DNA from: Tubulanus polymorphus
Lineage: Eukaryota; Nemertea; Palaeonemertea; Tubulaniformes; Tubulanidae
Direction: 5' to 3'
Assembly: GCF_964204645.1 (NCBI RefSeq)
Contig: NC_134027.1
Location: 7,552,485-7,616,484, forward strand
DNA length: 64,000 nt
Part shown: positions 11,452 to 46,993 of the stretch, piece after piece
How the letters are laid out: every line of letters starts with the position of its first letter
Numbering within the stretch: the stretch's first letter is position 1
Position numbers and translations under genes: made by a program
The notes under the pieces: generated by a model
What the model saw: only the letters and a program-made list of their open reading frames with translations
What the model was told of the DNA's origin: nothing
The model's database searches: none

Positions 11452-14400
11452 CTACAAAGGTATGTCCTCACCAAATTTACTGATATGCGCTGCTCGCTTT
11501 GCAGGAATCACCAACTGAAAATGAAAATGTTAGCAGTCTTAATACTAAAGAGCCATGAAGAGGGCTTTGAAGTAAATACACAAACAAAAACCTTCAATTT
11601 TTGAAAACGAAATCAAGTGTTTTGTTCATTTTACCTCATTGTGTACGTAGGAATCACAGCCATAACACCATACTGATAAATCAGAGAAACTTAGAACAAC
11701 ACGATGATCCGTTGATAATCCATGCATTAACATATGTTCATTTATATAACGACCACAATGTACCTGGAAAAAGCATCACATAGATTATGAAAATAGATTG
11801 TAATCCGCATGTACATAGAAACATAGAAGGTTTCAATGACAGCCACTTGGATGTTCTAGAAAGTACGAGCTTTTTGAGATGATTGTTCTACTGGTACTTA
11901 CATCATAACAAACAAGACAAATCCAGTTTTCCGCTGGATCGCCGCAATCCATACAAGATTGTCGCACATCTATTCCCGCTCCAGGCACGGGTTGCACTTC
12001 ATATAAATGTGGACACCATAACAATGGAACAACTGCATGTAATTCCTGTATGAAATGCATAATGATTTTATCTACAATGAGGGTTTAAACATTTCAGTTT
12101 CAGTCATTGAAATCTTCAATCATAGTTAACGGAATGAATTTGCACCAAGATTCCTTGAGGTACTTACATTTACATCATGTTCAACACACATCTGTCCAAT
12201 TAAACCATTGATCGTTGTTGAAGGAGACATTACTGGACTACTTTTTCCACCAATAGCACCCTCTAGTTCGTCATCATTATCAACTCGAATACCACCATCA
12301 TCGATATCAAATGAGATGACTTCACCAGCTGCTCCCATGTCCGAGTTACCTATTTGATTATCTGCTTGCCTATTATCCACTAGAAATATTCAATTAAGCA
12401 GATTATCGCAATGTATGGACAGTTACCAGGGGATTCAAGTGATTAATGGAAGGAAAAGATTTGAGGAAGATTACTTACAGGTGAGACGATCCATTGCATG
12501 AATAAATTCGTCCGTACTAGAAAAAGTTGAAAAATTAAGTACATGAATGAATTGACCGTGAGTTTAGCTCAAACTACGTTATATTCTGATTTCTATTTTG
12601 ATGTTTTCTGTGAGGCTATACCTTTGATCCGCCGATGCAACTGAGGATTCCCATGCATCTGTTGAACTACTGACCGCCGAGTCTTGATCAGACGAAATTC
12701 GGACCATTTTCTTACGTTTCACTGGAGCTGGTAAATCAACTACAAGTAACAACAAAATCTTCTCATAGCACTAATGAGCACTAAAATCTTCTCATAGCTC
12801 TGTAAAACTATTGTAAAACTATGTTTCCCATCAAACCAGTCTGTACAACTGTGATGAGTAATAAATATATACTATACTATACTAATGATGACACAATCAG
12901 TTCGTGTTTTGACTGTTTCGCAAATTGAATTTATTAGTCTTCCAGATATGCGACACTGAACGAACCTCTGTATTTGAGGCATTTCCAATACTTCTGTTGA
13001 GTATCCAAAACTTGCTGAAGAGTCTTAACAGCGCTGAAAGTAAACAAGTTATAAACAAAGGCTAACGATTTGATCATATTCAAATACTGAACTTGAATAG
13101 CAGATATTGTTTACCCAGTGAAAGCAGATTTTGGTAAGGAGAAAAAATAGTCTCGCACGAAGACATATGTAATGTTTTAAAACAACAGGCTGCCATTTTC
13201 AACATACCTATCACATGGTATCACAGGATGGTTTAGAATGGGGCACGCATCGCCTAGTAATGTGCTAGTACACATTGCCATTGATTCAGATATCGACTGT
13301 AGATTATAGCCACCCTACAACAGCATCAAAAAATAATAATGTTTGATCTTTGCAATGCCACACACATGATTATCGGATGTCTAAAATGCCTTACTTCTAA
13401 AGCCAGAATCACTTTCCCATTCGCTAGACCCATTAGCATGTGGGTCATATGAGCATAGCCCTCAGGAGTTACTTTGAATCCACCCTGAAATAGAAGGAAA
13501 TTGCAAAATCGACAAGAATGCTCAGAATTAAACACAGTTTGGACCTTTTATTTACCAGTGGGTCCCCTTGAGCTGCATCAAAACCAGCAGATACAATGAC
13601 TAATTCCGGATTGTACTGAAAATGTTCACAATGACAAACTGTTAGCAAGTAGATTTTCATATCGCTTCAAATTCAAAAGTCGAAACAGGAACTTACTTCA
13701 TATGCAATTGGCATAACGACGTGGTGGAATGCAGAAATATAAGCAAAGTCACCCAAACCACGCTGAAAAATGTAACTTAGCGCATGAATGAATATCAAGG
13801 ATTGCGCTGGAATGATAGTAGCAAATCAACCAAGTAAAATACCTTATTCCATGGAATATTGACATTGAAACCTTCCCCTTCATCGACTCCAACCATATCA
13901 AAATTTGCATCCTCCGATGCTGGGAAAAATGTTCCATTATCATAACGATGCAGTGATATATACAACACACTAGTAAACAAAAATATGATTTTTGATTTTA
14001 CATCAGTAATGTTAACTTTGATTCAGATACAGTTTATTAATGAAATAAACACTGACCCCGGATCTCTTTCGAACATATGTTGTATACCATTTCCATGATG
14101 TACATCCCAATCAACAATCAAAATCCTGAATCAAAAAATGAATATACTTGAATGAGCCCGATAATTAATACTTAATTTGGATGTTAAATGTTCTGTACCG
14201 TGAAAGGTTATATTTTTTCTGTGAATATTTGGCAGCTATTGCAACGTTGTTGAACAAACAGAAACCACAGGCTGATTCGTCCTCTGCATGATGGCCAGGC
14301 GGCCTGAAAAATATCCAATATCAAGTTATTACAAAGTATTTCTAATGAAAACAAGTATTACCAGTAAATAGAAGAAAACGCATATACCTGACTACTGCAA

Positions 14401-17400
14401 TTCCGTTTTGTGACTTTCCTGTTAAAACATTGTCTATAACTTGTAAAAGACACCCAGCAGCTAATAGAGCACATTCATATGAATCCTGAAATTAGAAATA
14501 AAAAATTCAACAAATTCATACCTAGGGTGGGTCAAACATTTAATCACCCAACTACGATGCATAATACTACCGGTACCTGATTGAAGAATATAGAATTATA
14601 TTGCAGCTGCATTTCCTTCAAATCACTGTTTTTTGAGGTTTTAGTGTCTTTCATTCTTTTGACGTGGCTTGGAGAATGTACAAGCAAGAGTTCATCTTCA
14701 GTTGCAGAACGACTCTAGAATTGAAATCAGAATCATAATCCAGGATCATCGATGTCGTCAGTGGAATGCGGGATTTGACTGTTGAACAAATAATCCATAG
14801 ATAGTTACTGGAAGACGCTGACATCTATTGACTAGATTGAAATCTTCATGCATGGTAAATATACGTGAAATTCGGTCCGGTCGCTCGGGATGACCTCTGA
14901 AAATGGTATTTTTTTTATCTGGCATAAGTTTCAGGCATGATTTAGGTGTATATAAGTATTAGAAAGTCAACCGAGCACAGAATCAAAGGCACATGACTCA
15001 CGGATTCACAGGATCTTTATGTCTTCTCATTCTTTCATCATAAACAAAACAAGTTTGATTCGGTGCCTTGGTCAGATCTGTCTGCCGAATCACATTATCG
15101 ATCACTTGATCAAAGTGTGCTACTTTTTCAGAATCAAGGGATGGATAGGAATCATAAATTTCATATTCGTCAAACTTTTCATTCATTCTAAAAATAAACA
15201 ACATCCAATTGAGTTTTTGATAGAAAATATGTAACATTTTCTACGTCTGAATAAATGAGTGCTTGCTATATTACCTCTCATAATATAGGTCTGCATTATT
15301 GCTGCTAGTTATTTCTGAAAACCGATCATTATCACAAATTCCTTGCATCTTTAATGATTTCCAGTACGGACGCAATACATTCAATGCATTATATATCGTT
15401 TTAAGTGCGCTGAAAATGAAATCAGCAACTTTTATTATGATAACTGAAACAAATTCACTTTCACTAGTATAAAAAATATTTCAGGTCTTTTTAATAAAAA
15501 AGTATTTGCAATAAATAACCAGTGGTGGTTTTTGACGAGGTAATAACAATGCTGATTTTACCTTTCACAAGGTGGATTCAAAGATTTCAGTGGGGGACAT
15601 GGATCGCCCAGTAAAGTCCTCAGAGTTAACGCTACGCATTCAGACAATGATTTAATACAATATCCTCCTTCCATAACGATGCATAGTTTACCGTTTGCTA
15701 GTGACATGAGCTGATGAGTAAGGTGCGCATAGCACACTGGTTCGACTAACATTTCACCCTACCACAAAAATGCATTAATCAATTTCATTTCATGAGTCAA
15801 AGAGGTAGTCCCATATAGGCCGATATGACTGAAAATATATTTCTCTAACAATATTCAATTTGTTGAATTTGTCAAATGAATATTCAATACAATACATGTA
15901 TTGTATCATAACATTAATGATTAGTAAGCTACTTAAATGTCATTTGATACAAAATGACCACCAGAGTGGATACTAAGATATACATGGTAGACATCCATTC
16001 TGTAACTTGATTGGGCTGGTGATGAAGGAATGGTTTTTGGGAAGGAATAAAAAGCTTTTTTGATTGACTTAGGGAGGACATCACATCACCTGAAAGATTT
16101 ATATTCATATGGTAAATGGATTTGAATGCAGGAGCATGTTGTTGCGGGAGGTCCATTCAACAATCTTAAAATGTACCTTCAAATCACCGACTGCTGCATC
16201 AAAGCCAGCACTAACAAGAACAATCTCAGGACAAAACTAAAGATTAGAAAAAAATAAAGTTAGTGTATACCTCTGGACATCCAATAGCTGCATCAAATCC
16301 TGAACAAACTAGTACTAACTCAGGCTGAAACTATAAAAAAACAACATATATAACCTTTTCAGCCTGATATACACTCATCTACAATCAAACATATCCCAAT
16401 ATTCATGAAACGTATCTGTCAACAATGTGTTAATTAGGAAATGTGGATCACTTTATCATTCATTAATATTTTTTGCTTACCTCATATGCAATAGGCATCA
16501 ATATTTGGTGAAAAACAGCTAAATATTCACTATTAGACATTCCTGTTTTATTCCATGGTATGTTTATATTGTACCCAATACCCCTGCCAGTTCCGATGTG
16601 GTCATAATCGGATTCTTTCAAATTCGGCCAGAAATATCCGAGTTCATATCGATGTATAGAAAAGTACAGCACTCTGAAAAGCAAGACGATCAGCTTCTAT
16701 GTATGAAATTTCCATTACCCGGTAAGACTGGTAACAAGAAATTGGACAAATTCATATATTGCAAATAAATTCTGAAAGTATAACCGGTACACTAACCTGG
16801 GATCATCATAAAACATGTATTGTATGCCTTGCCCATGATGAACATCCCAGTCAACTATCAATATTCTGCGAAAAAAAGTGATGCAAATTCTCTGTCAATG
16901 TATCATCCAATTGCAACTGAGAGACGTGAAAAACCTTTCTGTAGATTTTGATGTAATTTTTCTACCTTTGTAGCCCAAGGTTTTCTAGCCCATGTTTTGC
17001 AGCGATTGCTACGTTATTGAAGTAACAGTAACCGTTACATTCATTGTACATAGCATGATGTCCTGGAGGTCTGAAACGAAAGATGCATAAAAATCTATGA
17101 AACACTTGTTTTTGAATACGGGTACATACACATTGAAAGCATATACGGTACATACCTTGTAATTGTCAGACCATTTTTCACCTGCAAATATGAAGTGAAT
17201 GATGTAAGTATGATTCATAATACATTGTATTTTCGTATAATTTGTGTATGTCAGATATATATACCTTGCTGTCAACTATTTGTTCCACTATATTGATGAT
17301 ACCTCCTAGTACTAAACTCGCAGCTTGGAAACTATGCTGCAAATCAGAGCAGATTACTAATGATTAACTGAACGAAGAAAATAAGGGATTTCATAGAATT

Positions 17401-20138
17401 ATGATTTTTCCGATTTTGAAAGATCTTCATTGATTGACTTGACTATTATTGCCACGATTAATTACCAGTATTTAGAATTTATCGATTGATTGAATATATT
17501 TTGGTTAGTTTAGTATGTAAATAAGAACAATTACTATAAGCAGATATACTATAGGTTATGATTTCACAGAGTAAGCACATAAAAAGACACTTAATGAAGG
17601 TACATGGCTCTACCCAACAAAAATAATCGGATCTCAGTACCAGATATAGGACATAGATTGATATCTATAGGTAAGCATGGATATCCAAATTGTCAGGACT
17701 GGATTCTTGAGCCAAACCTGGACTAACAGGCTTTATGACTTCATGAAGATAGCAGGTGTCAAATATGAATTTCAGGTTGCAGCAAGATGAATTTTGAGTG
17801 ACGATCAGATTCAGATGATTGTTTTGAAGGCATGACTCACATTGTGAAAATAAACAGAATCAAAAAGTGACGATTCATGTTTTAAATCATTTTCATTCAA
17901 TTCTGAGGACTTTTTCACCAATTCGTAAATTTCTTCATCATGGCCTAAGAGTATACTACAGAGGTCAGCAGTTTTCACCTGTGGAACAACATCATTAAAT
18001 AAAACAGTGGATGTTAAAAGAGAAATAAAATATGAAATAGGGGAAGGACATTACACGGGTCCACAGACACATGAAACGTATATCAACTTCATTCAAACTT
18101 GTTCAAATTCTTTTCTGTAGTTTCCAAAAGAACTCATTTGTCAATGGACAAACTTTTTTCAAAAAGTGACAAATTCAAAGAAATTGATTGTAGATGTGAA
18201 TACTTGGTAGGTAAAGAAAGATTAGAATATATATCTTACAACACTACATTGCACGTGCGTTGGAAAAACAACAACTCCTCAGAGAACTAGGGGTCCTGGA
18301 ACACCATGCCCACTTGGAAATTAGTCCGAAGGTCTGAAATGCTTGACAATCTGAAATCTTAAATATCTAACACCTCCTGGTGAACAAATACAGAAACTTC
18401 CACATGAAACTCATCACAATCATGGAACATATCAAGTTACAGCAAAATATGCATAGATCCCAAAATAAATGGAAATCCTGCGTAATTTCACCATTCAATA
18501 TCCCCTTGTGAACGTATGCAAAAGCCAATGATCTTGAAAATGAAAGTGCCAAGTTGACTAAATATGGACGGATGGATGAATGGACAGAGAAAAGGTGAAG
18601 AAAGGGAATGCAAAAGCTCGCTAGGACTAAAGTCCCAAGTGGGCTTAAAAGCCTTTTGATTAGAAATTTGATGAGAAAGTTCAATTTGCAATCAAACATT
18701 GTTACATTTTGACTTCATGGAGAAAGGTGTGGTAGCTTTTCTGAGGTTAGACTAGAGAATGGTTGAGGAGTCACATGACTGGTACAGCAGCCACACAACT
18801 CACTTTATGAAAGTAAACATCATCCATTTTCATAGCGACTGCACTTAGCTGCTCGAAGTTCATATTACGGGTACTTCGTACCAGGTCTAATAAACACGGA
18901 CTATGAATCAACAAGAAATGCTCCTCTAATGCTTCTTCGGCCTGTTGTAAAATTATCGTAATTTGTTCACAAAACCTTTGATCAATCTGTACAATTCCCT
19001 ATTTATAAAGTACGAATGACGGGACTATTTTTTTAACGTAGTATGGATCACCAAAGAGATTTGTAGCCTCCTAGATGAGGAAGCACAAATTAGCAAATAC
19101 CTAACCAAGCTCATGTCAGAATGACTAAAAAAAAATGAGATACAACAGATCATTCGCCAACAACCGCTAGCAGTTTATGGACAAAACAGCAACCAAGTCA
19201 TACATCTGTTATATATATTTGACCAAAATGAGATCAAACCTAAAATGGAATAGTGTTATGATGAAAAATGACATGTATGAATTATACCTCTAATCTGGTG
19301 CATCGTTTTACTAGTCCATACTCTACACAACGTTTATAAGATTCTGTAATTCTTTCTGGACGTTCGGGGTGGTTTTTATCCCACAGACAATGATATGCAG
19401 CCATTTGCTCGTCATATACTAGACCGGTCCTGAAAAATATTCATAATTCAAAGCTTCCTTAACTGAAGAAACTGGAGGCAGGAAGCTATCGTCAAATGAA
19501 AAACCTACTCAGAGGGAAAATCTTTCCGTTTGTCCATAGCCTGAAAAATTAAAAGATTTGCTTAAATCATCTAAAGACTTAAAGATAAATTATGAAAGGT
19601 ATTCACAACATGCTTATTATATAATGCAATGGCAAAGTGCCACTGTGGTGGGGTGAGGTGTATTTACAGTGCTTAAGAAAAGAGTTCTTCCTCCTTGATT
19701 TTTCGACGACCGAAGTTGACGTCCACGTTTTTTTGATTCAGCCAGGCTAGCGCTGGCGCTCTTTGATTTTTTCTTACTAGATGAAGTCTAAAAGAGAGCG
19801 TTTTCAGCATGCTACATAAAATCAACCTTTCCTAGTGCTCCAGTGGTAAAGAAAAATTCGGCAGCAACAAACAAAAAGTGGTGTGAATGTGGCAATAAAT
19901 GGAAGAAGAGTATTTCATTACAACAAACCTTTGGGCGTGTACTGGTTCCGCTAGGAGTTTTGGCTCTACGAACAACACCGGGATCTGTGTTTTCATCGAC
20001 AACTTGAAAATCACAAAGCGCCACAGTTTCGGCAGATTGATTCTGAGCAGATGGTGCCCGCCATCCCAGATTATCTTCCGCTTTGTCTGATATATCATTG
20101 CCTTCTGCACTGGATAACAATTTTTCTTTATCATCCAT
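11452..20138 (-). CDS. HDAC6: Histone deacetylase 6 (two deacetylase domains plus ZnF-UBP)
   Basis: More than 25 exons are visible. The N-terminus (from 20138, [15 protein letters not shown]) is low-complexity and basic. Deacetylase domain 1 runs from about 19433 to 15280 with [15 protein letters not shown] (16966-17070), VDWDVHHG (16799-16863), a GFDAA zinc-ligand exon and EGGYCI (15563-15759). Domain 2 runs from about 15188 to 12965 with [32 protein letters not shown] (13557-13618) and GGYNLQS (13209-13315). The C-terminal ZnF-UBP (12060-11452) shows [41 protein letters not shown] and ends [12 protein letters not shown]6 deacetylates tubulin and other cytoplasmic substrates, and its ZnF binds free ubiquitin C-termini. 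Two exon pairs inside domain 1 are duplicated and listed separately; the mature mRNA presumably uses one of each. Confidence 0.93.
16177..16236 (-). other. HDAC6: HDAC6 domain 1 alternative exon 'a' ([10 protein letters not shown])
   Basis: This 60-base exon has an AG acceptor and GT donor on the minus strand and encodes [20 protein letters not shown]. It keeps the zinc-ligand Asp of GFD and ends in Lys, which aligns with the domain 1 'gatekeeper' Lys of vertebrate HDAC6 (GDPK). It is the downstream member of a tandem pair with 16271-16330, with the same length and phase. Confidence 0.85.
16271..16330 (-). other. HDAC6: HDAC6 domain 1 alternative exon 'b' ([10 protein letters not shown])
   Basis: This is the upstream copy, also 60 bases, encoding [20 protein letters not shown] between good splice signals. 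The zinc-ligand Asp is kept, but the last residue is Glu and the GD of GDxK is GC. The gap to exon 'a' is 34 bases and contains CACTAAC, a good branch-point match, only about 11 bases from the exon 'b' donor. Confidence 0.85.
17841..17978 (-). other. HDAC6: HDAC6 domain 1 alternative exon 'B' (SVYFHN)
   Basis: This 138-base, phase-0 exon encodes 46 residues beginning [19 protein letters not shown] and ending SVYFHN. It has the same length as the exon at 18804-18941, whose place in the domain it could take. It lacks the HSP motif found in the other copy and in the equivalent domain 2 exon. Both borders match splice consensus (ACAG acceptor, GTGAGT donor). Confidence 0.75.
18804..18941 (-). other. 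HDAC6: HDAC6 domain 1 alternative exon 'A' (DVYFHK)
   Basis: This 138-base, phase-0 exon encodes [20 protein letters not shown] through DVYFHK. The IHSP motif matches the VHSP of the equivalent 46-codon exon of domain 2 (about 14577-14714) and the LVHS of vertebrate HDAC6, so this is probably the ancestral version. Exon 'B' lies 825 bases downstream in the direction of transcription. Confidence 0.8.
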
Positions 20139-26090: not shown

Positions 26091-28817
26091 TCAAGCGTTT
26101 CCTCTTGACAACGATATTTTACGCATCTCGAGCACCATAGCATTGACTGCTGCGAATATTTCTTCTCCTGAAGGTTTTATATGATCTGGGCTAATGAGAA
26201 ACCCGGACCCCATGAAGTTTCTGCTGGGACGAAGCTCCAAACCAAACGCATATTTCACGCCATTCGCTTTCAACCAGTCCATTTTCGTCCCAGACGCAGG
26301 ATCTAAAAGAATTCGTTGAATAATTATCTACACGTATTTTTACTTTGAAGTCAACTCCACAGTATCAACTTACAGATTATTTCCGGTGGGCTCCCAGCTT
26401 TCCAATGGTGACCGCTTGACTCAAATATTGCATTTGTTGCCGCTAATGAAACTTGCATCTGTTTATCAGAATTCAGAAAATAAATCTTCTGTGTAATAGA
26501 TTAGTTCAGATATTATTTCGCATTTTTATCAATACCAAATTTCATTTACATAAAATCTTACCAGATCTGCTCTATCAGCTGGATGTGTAAGTTCAGACGA
26601 CCATGGTATCATCCATAGTTCAGAGTAGGCATGCATAGACACTACGGCTTTTAGTCGTCCGTTTTTCAGTAGTTTCAGCATTATGTCTCGTACGTTCTGA
26701 GTTTCTGGCTCGGAAAATGCAGCAGGACCACCGTAATCATCAAAACACTGACCCGGGTTGGTCTCTGAAATGGACATCACCGCAAACATCATTTCATGCA
26801 CTTCATACGTGTATTTTTTCCTTAGAGGCCGCATTGGAATTTTCCTTGGATTGTATAATGATTCACTAATTAATCGAAAAATGAGTCCACTACCCCTGAT
26901 AACTAACCATTCCACCTGTAATCCCAATTTCTATTCAGATCTACACCGTGAAAAAAACAATCATCATCGCCTTCCTCCAACAGGTCTGGGTTAACCGGTC
27001 TTTTATTTTTCCTCCACATACGACTCTTGTAAAAAAAAACCAATGAATTTGAGCAACAATTTCCCAAGAAAAAATCCTTCTTTCGAATCAGCACCAATAT
27101 TATGATCTGCGTTGAATGGATATACCGGTATGATATGTTACCTCTCCACCTTTGAACGTCATTTCATAACCATCGGGATTTTCAACGGGAAGGATATACC
27201 AGTCATACATTTCTAATAGGTATCTAGACTTCCCTGTCCAGTAACCTTCGGTTAACTAAAACCCAAGATGTTGAAAAAATTACCGGGTGTTTTTCATACA
27301 ACGGTAAATTCGTAGTTTGATATACATGTATGCCAACCTTATGAATGAGATACAAAGCTGTTGCCGGAGCCAACCATTCCCGACTATGAATTCCCGCATC
27401 TATGAATATTATAGGCTTTGGTTTTGCAGACTTTAGACCCAGCTAGAAGACGCAAAAGCAAATGTTGTAAACATTTACTAAAATGTAATAAAATCAATTT
27501 TCATCAAATCTTAAAAAAGAGCTACGGTATTGAAAATGCGTTAACCTTGAAAACGATCATATCCCTCCCTTCTCGTGTCTTTCCGATATTCACTATTGTT
27601 GCAATATTCCACCACCTCCTCTGCATTTTTCTGAGCCATAGTACGATCTGAAGTAAGTTAACATACGTAACAAACATCGTTGTTTTGGGGTCTCGGTAAA
27701 TGAACTTGAAAATGTGCTTCATGGCAGAATGGGACATGTGAAATGAAAGCGATGTTATATCGAATAGCTATCATCACTATCCTTACCTCGCCGTATGTTG
27801 CATAATACGACAAAATGTAGTCTAAAGTTGGTCTGCTGAAAGTATGCTGTCTGGTAGATTTCAATTTTTCTTTTTTGTTCAGGTAATTCTCTTTCAACAC
27901 GGCTCTGTCAAATAAAAATATGTGTGTGTGAACTAAGGAGAAACAATTCGTTGAGAATACACCATCATCGCCCGGTGATGGAATCTAGTGAGACAGGGAA
28001 AACGTCGTGTCTTATGATTCTGATTTCAACACACTAAACTGTTAACATAGTGGATTGTATATATGATTCTTATTCAAAGACGGTTTCAGTTTTAGTTCCT
28101 TATATATAGACTTTCAATACGTTTTCAACTTAAACATCGGATTCGATCTATCAAATAGAAATACCTCGTACCTTAGAATATCTGTTCGAAACCATCACGT
28201 TGTTTATATTTATCTTACCTGCCAAGAGTTTTTTCTACTTCAGAAAATTCAATATTTCCTCTTTCCAATATGCTGATGACTTCATCCTTGGAGCTAGTAG
28301 GTATTACCGCTTCAGTTGGGACGTGTAAATTCGGTTCGAACCAAAAAACAACCTAGATTTTATCAACGGTACAGTAATTACGAGTTATTATTTTAGCGTT
28401 TTGCTGAGTGAATAATGGTGTAGTATTAAAAGCTGTAGAGATCAATTTATCTAAATTTGAAGCACTTTTTCGTGTTCATATAAGTTATACAATTGATACA
28501 ATAAATCTTAGAATATATCTATATAAATGAAAGGCCAGCGAAAAAAAGGATACTTACATTTTTACTTTTCAATCCTTTCACTATTGATAATTCAATGTCA
28601 GAAGTCGGAGAAATTCGAAATATGCTATCCCTAAATAGATCATATAGTCAACTACAGCGTTTCCTTTTATATATCGAATAAAGTAAATCGGTAACGCGGC
28701 CTATTTCCTTACTGACTTACTCACACATTTATAAAACGCTTATGTTATTTACCTGGTTAGGTCTTCACATGCTCCTAAAGCGAGTACACAGAACAGGATA
28801 AAGAAGACCGCCATCAT
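26091..28817 (-). CDS. Secreted M14 procarboxypeptidase (CPA/CPB family)
   Basis: The start [17 protein letters not shown] is a signal peptide (28753-28817). Exons to about 27790 encode the activation propeptide ([23 protein letters not shown]), and STRQHTF offers a basic activation site. The metallocarboxypeptidase domain has the zinc ligands in [13 protein letters not shown] and [13 protein letters not shown], the substrate motif [10 protein letters not shown], and the catalytic Glu in FGLELRPSR. The exon 26091-26304 begins [10 protein letters not shown]. The residue aligning with position 255, which sets specificity (Ile in CPA, Asp in CPB), is Met, so I infer preference for hydrophobic C-terminal residues. 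The protein ends SLSRGNA at 26091. It is probably a digestive or extracellular enzyme. Confidence 0.87.
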
Positions 28818-31380
<2,563 letters not shown>

Positions 31381-34300
31381 ATGGAAATACGAGTAGAAAT
31401 GGAGAATGGTGTATCCGATCAAAACGCCAACATCCAGAATTCAACATCTTCATCAACTGCTAACGGGAGTAAATGGCATACGTCCGACTCGGTTGATGTC
31501 GCAAATCGCGCCGGATCGTTTGCACAGCCGGAATTAAAAAAGGACGTTGTAGATGTGCAAACCTGGTTAAAGGCTAGTGTTGATCACGGATTTATAAGGA
31601 TATATCCACCGGAAGCCTCATCGCGCCATTCCGAGTTGATCCCTTGCGGCCTAGAAACTACTGCACATAAAATCTGTCTTCAAATTGGCAAACCACCGAA
31701 TTCCCTTCACGTACAGTTTCACGGTGACGTCATACGACGACTGGACCCCGAGGAGTGCCCTCTAGCGATGCAAAGCGGATATCTAGAAAGTATCGGGTAT
31801 ACAGACACTTGCCGAATACAGGAAGAGGGTCCTAAAGAGGAATTACGCTATCTAGTTAAATTCTATTCGGGTAAGTGCTTTCTCCTTTATGATTAATGCG
31901 AAAATCATTTGCATTATGTACATATTTTAGTTATTTTTCAACGGTTTTAATTTCTTTATTTACCGGTAACTATATGTATTACACGTATATCACGTGTATA
32001 TATTTCAATCCATTCGGCATGGGGTTTGTACCCTAAAATACTATTTAGAATAGTTTTTTACATTGTCACAATCGTTGCGGGTAAAGCCATTGATTTGACT
32101 GGGTATAGAATTTTCGAAATATTTCAGTACTTACTGTAATGCCTAAAATACAATACCTTTTCTAGATAAGTACACGAATGCACGAGACTTTTATATGTCC
32201 CCCTTGAAATGGCTCTTGAGGACAAGCACACATTTGCGTATTCCAAATTGTAGTTGTTAGAAATCTACATCATAACAAAGACATTTTTTAATCGTACAAA
32301 ATGGTTTGCCTTTGGGGCCGGCTTTCTGAACAATTTTCCCCAACGAGGCGTTTTCTAGTTGTCTTGTAAGATGATCAATGAAAATTCTTCCTCGCTTTTT
32401 GCATATTGTTGTCTAATTCTAGTTCTTTCAAATCTCTTTTGAACACAGGCAAAATTTCCGATTATAGCACATATTCCAGACATCATCTATCCGGACTCTT
32501 ACATGTTCGGCAAGGGAAAATGTTAAAGCAATGGACTCAAAGATTCTGTGCAATATCGGGCACTAGATTATTGATATATAGAGGTAAAAATTGCCTATTT
32601 TCTACCATAAAAGATATGTGATCAACTTATTGAGTATGGATCTTTTATATTTGAAGATAAAACAAAAAACTACAAACCAACAATTATCCAACTCGCAAAA
32701 GGTTCGATTGAAACGGTAGAGATGAAGGGTCATCCTCTTTGCCTGAAGTTAACACCATCTGTTCAAGGAGAACGGTCTATTTATCTGTCGATAGGAAGTG
32801 AATCTGAATTCACAAAATGGTTGAAGAAGTGCAAAAAGGTGAGTAAAGAAAAGGTACGTATCTAACAATACTAACGCCAGGGATCGGTTAACTGTAGGTT
32901 ACATGATACAGTCCGTTCCATAAGACACCAGCAATTAATCTGCTAACAAAAATTAATTCATAATATTCAATCTCCATTTTGAGACGGATAATGATTGTTT
33001 TATGTTTGTAATGAATTGGTTTATCTACATTTTCAGGCAACTGCCAAACTTCCAACGCATGCAGATCTGTCAAACTGTCACCTAGAGGCGATTCCAGATA
33101 CTGTCTTTATGAATACGGACTTGCAAGTCTTGAATCTGCGTCATAACGTGTTACGAGAGCGCCCCCTGGACGATGACGCCTACACTATAGGATGGATAGA
33201 AGACATCACAAGGTATTTCATCTGCTAATGAGATATTTTTTGCAGCCGAAATGTCAATGTTCAAGGAATAGAGAGTAAATAGCAAAATTACGAATTTTCC
33301 AAAATTCGAGATTTCTAACCGAAATGGACATCTATCTTTTATTCAGGTTTCAGCGATTGAATATTTTGAATTTAGCGGACAATGACCTTGGACATTTCCC
33401 GAAAACATTGTGCGAGATGAAATCATTGACCGAACTCAATCTTTCTGGAAATCAGATTGATGAGATTCCAGCTGAAATAAAAGATCTCACAAAGTAGGAC
33501 CAAAAACAACCTACTCCGAACCATAAGATTTGAGATCTTCTGTTCAAAAGAACTGTATTCTTTTTTTCCAGCATGCAGTTGTTACATTTGCATAAAAACA
33601 GAATATCAGATTTACCAGAATCCATGGTCTGCTTGAATAAGCTAGTCACATTAGTTTTAGCGTTCAACCTGTTCTCCGACATACCAGACACGCTGCTTCG
33701 TCTAGTGGAGTCCTCGGTTTGCAAGGTAAAATATGGCGACAATGTTAGGAATCAGCATTTGAGAATTGAAAAGCCCATGGACGTATAACCGAGAGTATTT
33801 TCATAGTTTATTCGTCCGTGATAAGCCATTATGACATTCCTCTTTTTTTCAGATGGAAACGGTCATTATCTCTGGAAATAAAATCAGTCAACTTCCGCCA
33901 CGAGTCGTAAACAGAATGTCAAATCTGAAGAAAGCCGATTTTCGATTGAATCATTTGACCTTGTCAATGACAGAATCAATCAAGTTCACTTGTTTCGAAA
34001 ATCTAACGCATTTAGATGTAAGAGATAACCAGGTACGCGGGGATACACTAAAACCATTCAAGAATAAAGTATCATAAGCTGTAGTTTAACGAAATAAGAC
34101 GAGTTGATTTATTCCATTAATTCTAGGTTGGTGAATTATTGGACCTGCGGTTGTTGAAAGCTCTTGAATATTTGAATTGCGAAAGAAATCAAATAAATAA
34201 CTTACAACTAAATGGAACACAGCTCAAGTATATATATGCAGCGCATAACGGTGCGTATCGAAAATAAGTGAGAAAACTGCTTTATTTTCTGGACAATATT

Positions 34301-39068: not shown

Positions 39069-40103
39069 ATGGAAAATGATACGATGTCAGATGAAGACCA
39101 ATGCGGATCTTTGCCTCCGGAACGATGGGATTACAGATTTAGTGTGCTGATGTATCTATGCGTGTATGGACCGATGTCTTTTATTGGTATAGTGTTGAAC
39201 ATCCTTACTATCATTGTTCTCGGTCGGATGCAGAGTATTGCTTTACATCCAGTGAAGATCTTAGCCGTATTTGATATGTTATTTTCGGTGACAGTTTTTG
39301 TTATGTATCCGATGAGGACGCTGTATATTTACTCGCGATTAGGCGATTTAGTTTTTCGTTTTGACGACTGGTGGTTCGGTGCATGGTTTATCATCTTTGC
39401 AAGGCCACTTTTCTTCACGTTTCAAATGTCCAGGAACTGGGCTGTTCCGCAGGTCAGTTTAGGCCGACTCCTTGTCATTCTCTTTCCATTGAAATCTAAA
39501 CTATTTTCAAATGTTAGAGTCTATAATATTTCGAGTGTTGTTATAACCATTATAAGCGGAATTTCATTTTGGGCATTTTATGTGCCATTAGGCAGTCCAG
39601 TAATATGGGTGCACGCTAGATGTTTTCTGAATATTGGACAAAGCGCACTTTCATTGCCAAGATTTCCAAAGATTGAATTTTATAATCAATCATTTTTCTA
39701 TGGAACTCTATTTCTGCCGACAGCATTTTTGATTATTATAAATATATCGATAATGATATCATTATTTGTGGCCAGTTCAGCTAGACATAAAATGAGTTCC
39801 GACGCATTCAGCAAAACTATGAACCAGGAGAAAAGAATTTTGAGGATGGTTACTGTAATGGTGGTTGTATTTCTGTTTTGTGAAGTTCCCGGATGTATAG
39901 ACAGACTCGGGTCTATTGTAAAAAAGAATGTATTTATTGGTTTCACTCACGATCAACTAATGATCATGAGAAAAGCATTTTTAGCTTTGACAATTCTAAA
40001 TTCCACATTAAACTTTTTCATATATTGTTCCACGAATCGCAATTTCAAAAATGTCACTATTGATATTTTATATATATTTTTGTCATTTGCACAAAAGAAG
40101 TAA
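39069..40103 (+). CDS. Orphan rhodopsin-class GPCR, tandem copy 1
   Basis: A single-exon gene of 344 residues with seven hydrophobic segments. Landmarks: GIVLNILTIIVLGRM in TM1, LAVFDMLFS in TM2, MSRNWAVPQVSLGRLLVILF at TM3, where the usual E/DRY is replaced by LGRL, RILRMVTVMVVVFLFCEVPG in TM6, and LNFFIYC in TM7 in place of NPxxY. The SRNW...FPLK pattern recalls the FMRFamide-receptor-like and orphan receptors expanded in spiralians, so a peptide or chemosensory ligand is plausible but not shown. The two following copies share most of this sequence. The missing DRY suggests altered G-protein coupling. Confidence 0.8.
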   Translation: MENDTMSDEDQCGSLPPERWDYRFSVLMYLCVYGPMSFIGIVLNILTIIVLGRMQSIALHPVKILAVFDMLFSVTVFVMYPMRTLYIYSRLGDLVFRFDDWWFGAWFIIFARPLFFTFQMSRNWAVPQVSLGRLLVILFPLKSKLFSNVRVYNISSVVITIISGISFWAFYVPLGSPVIWVHARCFLNIGQSALSLPRFPKIEFYNQSFFYGTLFLPTAFLIIINISIMISLFVASSARHKMSSDAFSKTMNQEKRILRMVTVMVVVFLFCEVPGCIDRLGSIVKKNVFIGFTHDQLMIMRKAFLALTILNSTLNFFIYCSTNRNFKNVTIDILYIFLSFAQKK

Positions 40104-41871: not shown

Positions 41872-42903
41872 ATGGTTAACGATACGATGCCAATTATCAA
41901 ATGTGGACCACTGCCTCCGGAACGGTGGGATTACAGATTTAGTGTGCTGATGTATCTATGCGTGTATGGACCGATGTCGTTTATTGGTATAGGGTTGAAC
42001 ATCCTTACTATCATTGTCCTCGGTCGGATGCAGAGTATTGCTTTACATCCAGTGAAGATCTTAGCCGTATTTGATATGTTATTTTCGGTGACAGTTTTTG
42101 TTATGTATCCGATGAGGACGCTGTATATTTACTCGCGATTAGGCGATTTAGTTTTTCGTTTTGACGACTGGTGGTTCGGTGCATGGTTTATCATCTTTGC
42201 AAGGCCACTTTTCTTCACGTTTCAAATGTCCAGGAACTGGGCTGTTCCGCAGGTCAGTTTAGGCCGACTCCTTGTCATTCTCTTTCCATTGAAATCTAAA
42301 CTATTTTTAGATGTTAGAGTCTATAATATTTCGAGTGTAGTTTTAACAATTATAAGTGGAATTTCATTTTGGGCATTTTATGTGCCATTAGGTAGTCCAG
42401 TAATATGGGTGCACGCTAGATGTTTTCTGAATATTGGACAAAGTGCGCTTTCATTGCCAAGATTTCCAAAGATAAGATTTTATAATCTATCATTTTTCTA
42501 TGGAACTCTATTTCTTCCGACAGTATTTTTGATTATAATAAACCTTTCAATCATGATATCGTTATTTGTGGCCAGTTTAGCTAGACATAAAATGAGTTCC
42601 GATGCATCCAGCAAAACTATGAACCAGGAGAGGAGGATATTGAGGATGGTTACGATAATGGTGGTGGTATTTCTGGTGTGTGAAGTACCCGGATGTATAG
42701 ACAGACTCGGGTCTATTGTTAAAACGAATGTGTATATTGGTTTCACTCACGATCAACTAATGATCATGAGAAAAGCATTTTTAGCTTTGACAATTTTTAA
42801 TTCCACTATGAACTTTTTCATATATTGTTTCACAAATCACAATTTCAAAAACGCTACTATTGACATTTTACGCGTGTTTCTATCATTCACACAAAACAAG
42901 TAA
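41872..42903 (+). CDS. Orphan rhodopsin-class GPCR, tandem copy 2
   Basis: An intact single-exon frame of 343 residues, closely similar to copy 1. The N-terminus differs (MVNDTMPIIKCGPLPPERWD). The stretch 42029-42305, TM2 through TM4, is essentially base-for-base identical to copy 1, whereas the second half carries many substitutions (for example MNQERRILRMVTIMVVVFL and MNFFIYCFTNHN). TM3 again lacks DRY (LGRL) and TM7 has NFFIY. It is the best candidate for a working receptor alongside copy 1. Confidence 0.8.
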   Translation: MVNDTMPIIKCGPLPPERWDYRFSVLMYLCVYGPMSFIGIGLNILTIIVLGRMQSIALHPVKILAVFDMLFSVTVFVMYPMRTLYIYSRLGDLVFRFDDWWFGAWFIIFARPLFFTFQMSRNWAVPQVSLGRLLVILFPLKSKLFLDVRVYNISSVVLTIISGISFWAFYVPLGSPVIWVHARCFLNIGQSALSLPRFPKIRFYNLSFFYGTLFLPTVFLIIINLSIMISLFVASLARHKMSSDASSKTMNQERRILRMVTIMVVVFLVCEVPGCIDRLGSIVKTNVYIGFTHDQLMIMRKAFLALTIFNSTMNFFIYCFTNHNFKNATIDILRVFLSFTQNK

Positions 42904-43993
42904 ATTCAAAATGTTCTTAATTGAAAATAGTAAATACCATTAAAAACTGTTGACTGGTATATCAATCCATATTTTAGGTGCAAAAAGAGCAACGGGACAT
43001 TATTCGATATAGTGTTGTTGAATCAAGATTTCCCGAGATGCCCTAAATTCAACCTTCTTCCGGTTGCAAATATTTAAATTTTCATACAGGATTTAGAAAA
43101 TTCTTTGCATAATTCTTTAACTGCTTTTTTATCTTTTGCAAAAGAGGTGCTGATTAATCTAACCGTACAAATCAGATATAGGAAATACCATTGCAAACTT
43201 CTGGTGGTTGAAGTGGTCGAATCTCGATTAGAATAGACCACTTACCATAGGCGTTGATATAGATATGATACATAACTTCATCCAAATATCTGCTCTTTAA
43301 TCATGTAGGCCTATAGATCCTATAGAATACATTGGGACATTATATATGCATCTTAAACTATATATCAAGAACTTTGTTGTGACGGTACTGATACATGAAT
43401 AATAATTCGTCCGGAATCGCCTACATTCTTGGCTGGTTTGTTTTTCAACTGCCTGTATTATCTGGAGTTTGAATGATATGTTAGGTTTGAATTAATGATA
43501 ATACCCGTAACTTACTAACATAATTGATTTCTGAGACGTTTTCACAATCGATCAGAAATTGCGAAGTCCATGGTTAAAGACATTCTCCCGTGGAAAATAC
43601 CACGAGACAAAACTATGCAGTAAAAATGTGGACTTTTTCGGATCTTGGGTCGTTTGTACAAACTCTGCTTACGCCCCTGCATTGCTTTAACTGGTTGGAA
43701 GAGGAATGGACTGAAGAACTTTCATCTGGAATTTTGTCCCACTATGAAGAACATATGTATGTTAAGGTTCAGTATGCAGTCAGTGTCAAAATCGAATTTC
43801 CTCCATACTAATAGCCACCACTGGAGTTCACTTTTCGCAGATCCACTTCACTTTATAACGAGGATACCGGTATAGGTTACCACGAAGGTTTATCGAATGG
43901 TTCATTAAGAATAATATGGGAATAATATGCTGTCTAATCACTGATGTTACCGTAGACTGTTTTCCTGATACTACACACATAAAAAGTACTAAA
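42904..43993. other. Spacer between GPCR copies 2 and 3
   Basis: No gene is supported. It contains the second copy of the duplicated flank (43507-43845). Near 43175-43245 it also shows a fragment like the region after copy 1 (AAATACCATT...GAATCTCGATTAGAATAGAC). Confidence 0.55.
43507..43845 (+). repeat. Tandem-duplication flank, copy B
   Basis: Counterpart of 40965-41331 upstream of GPCR copy 3, with scattered substitutions and small gaps. It ends in ACTTTTCGCAGATCC. Confidence 0.75.
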
Positions 43994-45004
43994 ATGGTTA
44001 ATGATACGATGCCAATTATCGAATGTGGACCACTGCCTCCGGAACGATGGGATTACAGATTTAGTGTACTGATGTATCTATGCGTGTATGGACCGATGTC
44101 GTTTATTGGTATAGTGTTGAACATCCTCACCATCATTGTCCTCGGTCGGATGCAGAGTATCGCTTTGTATCCAGTGAAGATCTTAGCCGTATTTGATATG
44201 TTATTTTCGGTGACAGTTTTTGTTATGTATCCGATGAGGACGCTGTATATTTACTCGCGATTAGGAGATTTAGTTTTTCGTTTCGACGACTGGTGGTTCG
44301 GTGCATGGTTTATCATCTTTGCGAGGCCACTTTTCCCCACGTTTCAAATGTCCAGGAACTGGGCTGTTCCGCAGGTAAGTTTAGGCCGACTCCTTGTCAT
44401 TCTCTTTCCATTGAAATCTAAACTATTTTTAGATGTTAGAGTCTATAATATTTCGAGTGTTGTTATAACCAGTACAAGTGGAAATTCATTTTGGGCATTT
44501 TTTGTACCATTAGGCAGTCCAGTAATGTGGGTGCACGCTAGATGTTTTCTGAATATTGGACAAAGTGCACTTTCATTGCCAAGATTTCCAACGCTTCACT
44601 TCTATCATTTATCATTTTTCTATTGAACTCTATTTCTGCCGACAGTATTTTTGATTGTACTAAACCTTTCAATCGTGATATCGTTATTTGTGACCAGTTT
44701 AGCTAGACATAAAATGAGTTCCGATACATCCAGTAAAACTATGATCCAGGAGAGGAGGATATTGAGGATGATTACGGTAATGGTGATTGTATTTCTGGTT
44801 TGTGAAGTACCCGGGTGTATAGACAGGCTCGGGCTCGTTATAAAAAAGAATGTGTATGTTGGTTTTACTTACGATCAACTAATGATTATGAGAAAAGCAT
44901 TTTTAGCTTTGACAATTCTTAATTCCACATTAAACTTTTTCATACATTGTTTCACAAATTGTAGTTTAAAAAATGTTTCAATTGATATTCTATGTATAAG
45001 TTAG
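43994..45004 (+). pseudogene. Orphan GPCR, tandem copy 3, broken by one TGA
   Basis: It aligns along its whole length with copies 1 and 2, but codon 44624-44626 is TGA where both others have GGA (Gly, at the start of TM5, after LSFFY). The reading frame continues unbroken after the stop to 45004, so a single G-to-T change separates it from an open frame. Further changes include Phe to Pro at the end of TM2/TM3 (PLFPTF) and IHC in TM7 where the others have IYC. The 5' half would encode a receptor truncated after TM4. I call it a pseudogene, probably recent. Confidence 0.75.
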
Positions 45005-46006: not shown

Positions 46007-46993
46007 TCATTTTGTCGATTTCGTTTTACAAATATACGAACAAAATACTTTATACAGGTGCTTTCTGAACAGAGGGATTCGTGCGACGTAAACTGGAAAA
46101 TTTGCGGCATAATTGATCAGTGTGATGTACCCGCAGAACCAATACAAAGTGCCTAACCTACGCTTGTATCTATGCGATACTAGTTCCGGATGTTCTACTG
46201 AGTAGTACCCGAAAAGCAGACCTGACACCATTGGAAAATTTGTCAATACGAAGATAATTGATACAACTAGTAAACTAGTAGTAATGCTCCTATCCTGTTT
46301 GCTCACCTTAGCCGTTAGACTATCACCTTTCCAACGATGGCGGATAAGTTGGATGCAAACCATAACATTTAAGACACAAATGAATAAAGATGGTATGATA
46401 TGATATCCTAGGATACCGAGTACGTAACGAAATATATACAAATGATCATTTTCGGTGGATATTACATCGAAACATTCACCGTTCTGTTTCATATTGATTT
46501 CATGGAGGAAAAACTGCCGTATTTCGAGAGGTGTGACGATCGCGAGGATGCAAAAGAGGGTTATTTTTGTTCGTTTGTACGTCAGGTAGCGTTCAGCGCT
46601 CATCGGATGACAAAGGGCTACGTATCACTCTGCGGTCATTGTAACGGTAATTAAACCGGACATACCTACGCACCAGTTACCTATGTACGATCCTAATTTA
46701 CACGTAACGCTGTTTAGTCGGAAGAAATCAACGCCGATGTAACGATAACCAAGAACAACTAAAGAACTGGCCATGTGCAATAAATCGACGACTGCTAACC
46801 ACAATAAGTATAAGATACCGTTTCCCTTGAATTCCTTGTTCGTCGTGAACACGATGATTGTCAAAGTATTGCCGACAATTCCAAAACATACATTCGGCGC
46901 GAGGATATATTTTTCGTAAATTTTCATGGCAGTCCTGGCATATTTCAAGCCAGGAAATATGATTTCGGTAATGACCGTCACTGTTCCGTTCAT
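46007..46993 (-). pseudogene. Rhodopsin-class GPCR with TGA at the E/DRY arginine
   Basis: A 329-codon single-exon frame on minus starts MNGTVTVITEIIFPGLKY. TM1 has VCFGIVGNTLTIIVF, TM2 LYLLWLAVVDLLHM, and TM3 begins at the conserved Cys (VTCKLGSYIGNW). It then reads TVTMTAE, stop (TGA, 46625-46627), YVALCHPMS. TM5-TM7 are intact (HIIPSLFICVLNVMVCIQL; LVVSIIFVLTNFPMVSG; NFPVYVARIPLFRKHL). The stop replaces exactly the Arg of the E/DRY motif, most simply a CGA to TGA change. The family looks FMRFamide-receptor-like and is not a close relative of the three tandem copies. Without the stop it would be a full-length receptor, so it is either a recent pseudogene, a null allele or an assembly error. 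Confidence 0.72.

What the first reader, a model, noticed from the sequence alone, without database searches (positions are those of the whole stretch)
16177..16330. HDAC6 domain 1: mutually exclusive exons that swap the catalytic 'gatekeeper' residue
Two adjacent 60-base exons of the same phase encode alternative versions of the zinc-ligand loop: [20 protein letters not shown] and [20 protein letters not shown]. Both keep the zinc-binding Asp. They differ at the last residue, Lys against Glu, which aligns with the domain 1 gatekeeper Lys (GDPK) of vertebrate HDAC6 and the Leu (GDPL) of domain 2. From memory of structural work on zebrafish HDAC6, that Lys gives domain 1 its preference for C-terminal acetyl-lysine. 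Only 34 bases separate the exons, and the best branch point (CACTAAC) lies about 11 bases from the upstream donor, so joining both should be sterically blocked. One gene could thus make two deacetylases with opposite charge at the pocket mouth. I know of no such HDAC6 isoform pair, but I cannot search.
Basis: partly seen in the sequence, partly recalled or inferred. Interest (0 to 1): 0.88.

Follow-up and report, generated by a model that had tools for sequence, protein, structure and literature searches.

The report
HDAC6 exon pairs swapping pocket residues
An animal HDAC6 gene carries two pairs of alternative exons that look able to rebuild the mouth of one of its enzyme pockets, including a swap between a positively and a negatively charged residue known to set which acetylated molecules such enzymes accept; no RNA evidence was available.

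Summary
In an HDAC6 gene (two deacetylase domains plus zf-UBP), two homologous 60-nt, phase-0 exons lie 34 nt apart and encode alternative forms of the domain-1 loop with a zinc ligand. Their last residue aligns without gaps to the gatekeeper: Lys as in HDAC6 CD1 (K330), or Glu, which is the gatekeeper of the polyamine deacetylase HDAC10 (E274).

It swaps Asp and Ser at a substrate-binding position. Four domain-1 forms are possible.

Joining E to K looks sterically blocked: branch A is 10 nt from the donor, and the 20 constitutive introns modelled are 71-174 nt. Nothing comparable constrains A and B.

Three capped searches of the 268-Mb assembly showed no HDAC10-like locus. The bold reading is that the Glu form covers for a missing HDAC10. 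Against it: no HDAC10-type L1 insertion, altered neighbours (GCPE, GDLK), a weak exon-A acceptor, and no RNA or related genomes to test.

New variant of a known kind: exon pairs well supported, substrate switch inferred.

The parts
11452..20138 (-). HDAC6 gene: first modelled ATG to the stop after the zf-UBP; the exons between about 12967 and 12046 were not modelled
   Evidence: Pfam 2x PF00850 and PF02148
19288..19429 (-). exon e4, constitutive start of domain 1; loop L1 reads [12 protein letters not shown], without the HDAC10 PACE/PECE insertion
18804..18941 (-). alternative exon A (138 nt, phase 0-0), ...MDDVYFHK: Asp at zebrafish CD1 position 150 / HDAC10 D94
   Evidence: weak acceptor, score -4.54
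17841..17978 (-). alternative exon B (138 nt, phase 0-0), ...FDSVYFHN: Ser at the same position
   Evidence: also matched by the HDAC10 query at E 0.065
16481..16673 (-). exon e10, ending ...MPIAYE, upstream neighbour of E and K
16271..16330 (-). alternative exon E (60 nt, phase 0-0), gatekeeper Glu, HDAC10 type
16237..16270 (-). 34-nt spacer: donor of E, CACTAAC branch-like site with A at intron base 11, pyrimidine tract and AG of K
16177..16236 (-). alternative exon K (60 nt, phase 0-0), gatekeeper Lys, HDAC6 CD1 type
15562..15758 (-). exon e12, beginning GEMLVEP, downstream neighbour of E and K; carries the EGGY motif
14577..14714 (-). domain-2 counterpart of A/B (e16): also 138 nt and phase 0-0, one copy found
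13556..13615 (-). domain-2 counterpart of E/K (e22): also 60 nt and phase 0-0, gatekeeper Leu, one copy found
11452..12045 (-). zf-UBP, three exon pieces joined by eye

Best explanation
An HDAC6 gene of an unnamed animal, probably a protostome, holds two tandem pairs of homologous exons in its first deacetylase domain, A/B and E/K. The most likely use is choice of one exon from each pair. For E/K the choice is enforced by geometry: E's 5' splice site and K's branch site share 34 nt, so U1 on E's donor and U2 on K's branch point cannot act together and commitment to one excludes the other. The choice changes the rim of a pocket whose other catalytic motifs are constant. Gatekeeper Lys (HDAC6 CD1 type) would favour anionic substrates such as C-terminal acetyl-lysine; gatekeeper Glu (HDAC10 type) would favour acetylated cations and disfavour C-terminal acetyl-lysine, probably as a bifunctional enzyme because the HDAC10 L1 insertion is absent. 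A/B also swaps Asp and Ser at a substrate-backbone-binding position. Shown by sequence: exons, phases, homology, splice signals, spacing, residue alignment. Inferred: use of both exons, exclusivity, U1/U2 competition, change of specificity.
For: Exon coordinates, equal lengths and phases. Homology far above background (E to K 59 against 21; A to B 46 against 17). Gap-free alignment to HDAC6 and HDAC10 with either exon of each pair. Motifs PPGHHA, DWDVHHG, GFD and EGGY present in both forms tested (A+E, B+K). Donor and acceptor scores of E, K and B lie above the 90% decoy quantile or higher, and A's donor above 95%. 34-nt spacer with branch A 10 nt from the donor, below the roughly 50-nt steric threshold quoted in PMC7969005 (passages). 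Four of the six gaps touching alternative exons are longer than all 20 constitutive introns. Gatekeeper roles and E274L effect: PMC5454378 (passages; section 6).
Against: No transcript or related genome. A's acceptor is weak (-4.54, below the decoy median of -2.58). Nothing in the sequence prevents joint A+B use (825-nt intron; complementary words at chance level). All skip and include combinations keep frame. GCPE and GDLK each depart from the GDP consensus. No PACE insertion. D94A in HDAC10 changed kinetics little, and zebrafish and human HDAC6 preferred an acetyl-lysine peptide more than 100-fold over N8-acetylspermidine (passage). The codon-position test for constraint is weak (0.046, 0.073, pooled 0.015, ignoring saturation).
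Confidence: 0.6

Rival explanations
1. Only one exon of E/K (and of A/B) is in use; the other is an unused or decaying copy.
For: Each of E and K has lost one residue of the GDP consensus (GCPE, GDLK). A's acceptor is weak. No transcripts were available.
Against: All four exons are open, keep exact length and phase with no indel despite 35% and 60% base divergence, keep GT-AG and the conserved motifs. E and K both keep the zinc-ligand Asp. K retains a good branch site and tract inside a 34-nt spacer.
Confidence: 0.17
2. Both pairs are spliced alternatively, but the effect is fine tuning (stability, rate, partner binding) and not a switch of substrate charge class.
For: Most residues that differ between A and B are not at the named contact position (33 of 46 differ). 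D94A had little effect in HDAC10 and the gatekeeper alone is described as necessary but not sufficient.
Against: The E/K difference falls on the residue that converts HDAC10 specificity when mutated, and the two alternatives are exactly the two charged states known in HDAC6 CD1 and HDAC10.
Confidence: 0.18
3. The pairs are not exclusive: frame-preserving transcripts that include or skip both exons make an inactive domain 1 as a regulatory form.
For: 60-nt and 138-nt phase-0 exons preserve frame in every combination. A and B are separated by an ordinary 825-nt intron.
Against: A 34-nt E-K intron with its branch A 10 nt from the donor is far below the other introns modelled. The fold takes one 46-residue and one 20-residue unit without gaps.
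Confidence: 0.05

Closest known systems
HDAC6 (zebrafish and human CD1)
   Same: Two deacetylase domains and zf-UBP; domain 1 aligns end to end with CD1 (440 bits for A+E, 427 for B+K against 5eef); K-exon has the CD1 gatekeeper Lys
   Different: Two homologous exon pairs in domain 1; one offers Glu at the gatekeeper. No such pair was listed in the paper searches named in the report.
HDAC10 (zebrafish)
   Same: Glu gatekeeper in the E form; Asp at position 94 in the A form; domain-1 scores equal to those for HDAC6 CD1 (440 and 428-429 bits)
   Different: No PACE/PECE insertion in L1; second domain is a full deacetylase domain followed by zf-UBP, not the pseudo-deacetylase of HDAC10
Sterically enforced mutually exclusive exons (OGDH 4a/4b)
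   Same: Tandem duplicated exons with the branch point too close to the upstream 5' splice site (PMC7969005 passages)
   Different: Branch A 10 nt from the donor here, against 25-41 nt in human OGDH; whole spacer 34 nt; a catalytic specificity residue is exchanged; exclusivity not shown by RNA

Membership tests
HDAC6 | Two deacetylase domains and a C-terminal zf-UBP | tested here: met
   PF00850 twice, PF02148 once on exons joined by eye
HDAC6 | Lys gatekeeper in domain 1, Leu in domain 2 | tested here: inconclusive
   K-exon Lys and domain-2 Leu fit; E-exon has Glu
HDAC6 | Catalytic motifs of domain 1 intact | tested here: met
   PPGHHA, DWDVHHG, GFD, EGGY aligned in A+E and B+K forms
HDAC10 | Glu gatekeeper | tested here: met
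   E-exon only
HDAC10 | PACE/PECE insertion in L1 | tested here: not met
   [12 protein letters not shown] aligned to HDAC10 with a two-residue gap
HDAC10 | Pseudo-deacetylase second domain, no zf-UBP | tested here: not met
   Second PF00850 domain full length and zf-UBP present
Mutually exclusive exons | Homologous tandem exons of equal phase | tested here: met
Mutually exclusive exons | Feature that blocks joint inclusion | tested here: inconclusive
   Present for E/K (34-nt spacer); none found for A/B
Mutually exclusive exons | Transcripts contain exactly one of the pair | not testable with these tools
   No RNA data were available

The most novel reading that the evidence does not exclude
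One HDAC6 gene does the work of two enzymes by splicing. The A+E form (Asp150, Glu330 in zebrafish CD1 numbering) has an HDAC10-like acidic rim and removes acetyl groups from polyamines or other cations. The B+K form (Ser150, Lys330) is an HDAC6-CD1-type enzyme for anionic C-terminal acetyl-lysine. This may cover for an HDAC10 gene the animal lacks and would tie polyamine and protein deacetylation to a splicing switch.
Probability: 0.27. Interest if true: 0.87.

Novelty: new variant of a known kind. Interest (0 to 1): 0.7.

Why it matters
The gatekeeper was defined by comparing separate genes (HDAC6 CD1 Lys, HDAC10 Glu, others Leu or Met) and by point mutants (PMC5454378 passages). One gene that offers Lys and Glu as alternative exons would be a natural swap experiment on a single scaffold. 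It would make the role of HDAC6 domain 1 directly testable in an animal and would show splicing choosing an enzyme's substrate charge. If HDAC10 is truly absent, it also suggests how that activity could be kept after gene loss.

Tried and rejected
Assembly or recent duplicate: rejected. The pairs differ at 35% and 60% of bases, and the E/K stretch was found once in the assembly.

Further copies: in-frame peptides of 25 modelled exons were scanned ungapped over the window (B and K as queries). Only A/B and E/K have an extra copy within domain 1. Most other deacetylase-domain exons score clearly only on their counterpart in the other domain; e1, e2, e3, e7, e14 and e17 had no clear second match. 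Copies with indels or split by introns could be missed, and the 8- and 10-residue peptides of e7 and e3 have little power.

Competing RNA structures for A/B: inverted repeats exist, but the longest complementary words are at chance level (fractions of 300 shuffles reaching the observed value 0.09, 0.35 and 1.0).

Relatives elsewhere: one scan each of viral contigs and genome contigs gave none. The assembly has no relatives in the genome search.

Clade: COX1 not found. GH6, a tunicate cellulose-synthase marker from memory, not found, but the control rang nowhere either. let-7 matched at 51.1 bits, below its cut-off of 53.5. mir-2 gave 12 matches, 7 over the cut-off; one control genome (Caulobacter) rang below the cut-off. 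That let-7 marks bilaterians and mir-2 protostomes is recalled, so 'protostome' is likely, not shown.

Structure prediction was not used: the tool takes proteins that the DNA gives letter for letter, and this domain is spliced from many exons.

Literature: 10 of 10 searches used; most listed papers were seen only as titles and abstract starts. Seen as passages: PMC5454378 (section 6 whole), PMC7335359, PMC8868106, PMC8810773, PMC12220842, PMC7969005. Hai and Christianson 2016 on HDAC6 CD1 was not seen; I use what PMC5454378 says of it.

Full report
THE GENE. The window is bases 7,552,485-7,616,484 of contig C3 of a 267.8-Mb, 77-contig assembly. On the minus strand, from about 20,138 to 11,452, lies one gene whose spliced exons give two PF00850 deacetylase domains and, further on, a zf-UBP. 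That is the architecture of HDAC6. Domain 1 aligns over its whole length with zebrafish HDAC6 CD1 and about as well with zebrafish HDAC10 (A+E form 440 and 440 bits, against 5eef and 6ufn; B+K form 427 bits against 5eef and 428-429 against the best HDAC10 chains). Exons between domain 2 (ending about 12,968) and the zinc finger (from about 12,045) were not modelled.

THE REPORTED PAIR. Gene order is E-exon 16330-16271, a 34-nt spacer, K-exon 16236-16177; both exons are 60 nt, phase 0-0, with GT-AG ends. Either fits between e10 (ending ...MPIAYE) and e12 (beginning GEMLVEP) and completes a gap-free domain. They share 12 of 20 residues and 39 of 60 bases; differences by codon position are 8, 3 and 10. 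In an ungapped six-frame scan of all 64 kb the E query scores 59 on K, 59 on the domain-2 counterpart and 21 on the best unrelated stretch. The 170-nt stretch holding both was found once in the assembly.

A SECOND PAIR. The same domain holds exons A (18941-18804) and B (17978-17841), both 138 nt and phase 0-0. Each aligns without gaps to the same 46 residues of HDAC6 CD1 and ends in the motif D[DS]VYFH. They share 13 of 46 residues, so this duplication is older, or has changed faster, than E/K. A scores 46 on B and 61 on the domain-2 counterpart, against 17 for the best unrelated stretch. An HDAC10 query sent to the whole assembly also touched A (E 0.024) and B (E 0.065), both weak on their own. 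Domain 2 has one counterpart of each, with the same lengths and phases (e16, 138 nt; e22, 60 nt). None of the other 23 exon peptides scanned showed an extra copy within its domain (limits in Tried and rejected).

WHAT THE EXONS CHANGE. The last residue of E/K aligns without gaps to K330 of zebrafish HDAC6 CD1 and E274 of zebrafish HDAC10. PMC5454378 (passages; section 6) says that the CD1 Lys dictates specificity for C-terminal acetyl-lysine, that the HDAC10 Glu favours acetylpolyamines, that the other human HDACs have Leu or Met there, and that E274L cut N8-acetylspermidine deacetylation 20-fold while raising acetyl-lysine deacetylation about 100-fold. So the pair offers the HDAC6-type and the HDAC10-type gatekeeper. 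The A/B difference falls, by residue counting, on zebrafish CD1 position 150, CD2 S531 and HDAC10 D94: Asp in A, Ser in B. PMC5454378 states that D94 corresponds to the acetyl-lysine-binding residues D101 of HDAC8 and S568 of human HDAC6 CD2; PMC8810773 describes D101 and S531 as hydrogen-bonding the acetylated lysine's backbone (passages). Against over-reading: D94A in HDAC10 changed kinetics little; human and zebrafish HDAC6 prefer an acetyl-lysine peptide over N8-acetylspermidine more than 100-fold; the gatekeeper neighbours depart from GDP (GCPE, GDLK); and L1 lacks the PACE insertion, without which zebrafish HDAC10 lost polyamine activity 15-fold and gained lysine activity 16-fold. I therefore expect a bifunctional E form rather than a strict polyamine deacetylase.

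HOW THE CHOICE COULD BE MADE. In the spacer GTATACACTAACTTTATTTTTTTCTAATCTTTAG the best branch-like site, CACTAAC, starts at intron base 6, overlapping the E donor. Ten bases precede the branch A and 23 follow it to the end of the AG. Its score (9 of 10) ties for the best with three others among the 26 acceptors scanned. The 20 constitutive introns modelled are 71-174 nt. PMC7969005 (passages) gives about 50 nt as the steric threshold between 5' splice site and branch point, and describes OGDH exons 4a/4b as enforced in this way. E-to-K joining should thus be blocked, and U1 at E and U2 at K should compete (inference). Leave-one-out splice-site scores: E donor 6.58, acceptor 9.3; K 8.46, 6.92; B 4.65, 7.02; A 6.16, -4.54. 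The 90, 95 and 99% decoy quantiles are 4.39, 5.73, 7.66 for 541 donors and 4.04, 5.39, 8.23 for 448 acceptors. A's acceptor is thus poor, below the decoy median of -2.58: either it needs help to be used, or it counts against use of A. Of the six gaps touching alternative exons, four (346, 825, 504, 418 nt) exceed all 20 constitutive introns, one (150 nt) lies within their range and one is the 34-nt spacer. For A/B nothing found enforces exclusion: the intron is 825 nt and complementary words around it are at chance level. Skipping or including both members of either pair keeps the frame.

NO HDAC10 SEEN. Three searches of the assembly (PF00850, 17 matches; domain 1, 20 matches; zebrafish HDAC10, 21 matches) fall in six regions: this HDAC6; a class IIa-like gene on C10 (GFDAAIGHPQPLGG); two class I-like genes on C2 (GADSLSGDRLG, GADSLGCDRLG); an HDAC8-like gene on C1 (GADGVAGDPM); and, only, an HDAC11-like gene on C3 at 7.233 Mb (GTDILDGDPLG) (class names from motifs are recalled). 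Each search scored only 20 candidates, many taken by this HDAC6, and an assembly can miss a gene, so absence is likely and not proved. It makes the Glu form more interesting, since an HDAC10 function may have moved into HDAC6.

SPECIES. A let-7 match (51.1 bits, under its cut-off) and 12 mir-2 matches, 7 over the cut-off, suggest a protostome animal; the clade meaning of these families is recalled. No RNA or relative genome was available.

NOVELTY. Ten paper searches listed no report that I could recognise of alternative exons in HDAC6 catalytic domain 1. The library lacks most subscription journals, and most listed papers were seen only as titles and abstract starts. Mutually exclusive exons, HDAC6 and each gatekeeper state are known; both states in one gene, with a second pair beside them, is a new variant. 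My odds, by judgement: the exon pairs exist as described, about 0.9; E and K are both used and exclude each other, about 0.8; the switch changes substrate charge preference, about 0.55; it makes up for a missing HDAC10, about 0.27.

Noticed in passing
own assembly, C2:21.716-21.718 Mb, C3:4.553-4.555 Mb and C4:25.614 Mb: Twelve mir-2 family matches (six, five and one; 7 over the cut-off): two clusters and a lone copy.
   Followed up: no
window 39069-40103, 41872-42903, 43916-44626 (+): Three very similar long open frames that look like tandem rhodopsin-type receptor genes; Pfam 7tm_1 matched one of them below its cut-off (25.6 against 30.5 bits) and the other two not at all. A fourth frame at 46007-46603 (-) matches 7tm_1 and Srw over their cut-offs.
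   Followed up: partly
window 29128-29308: Uninterrupted AT dinucleotide array, 90.5 copies.
   Followed up: no
window 13556-14714 and 16177-18941 (-): Domains 1 and 2 share exact exon lengths and phases for the two segments that are duplicated in domain 1 (138 nt and 60 nt), so this exon structure probably predates or survived the domain duplication.
   Followed up: partly
window 26532-27442 (-) and 31339-31893 (+): Peptidase M14 (zinc carboxypeptidase) exons and a PHLPP RA domain, neighbours of the HDAC6 gene.
   Followed up: no
window 18380-18404 and 18946-18970: A 25-nt, 72% inverted repeat joins the exon-A acceptor region to the A-B intron; its 10-nt exact core is not clearly above chance (0.09).
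   Followed up: partly
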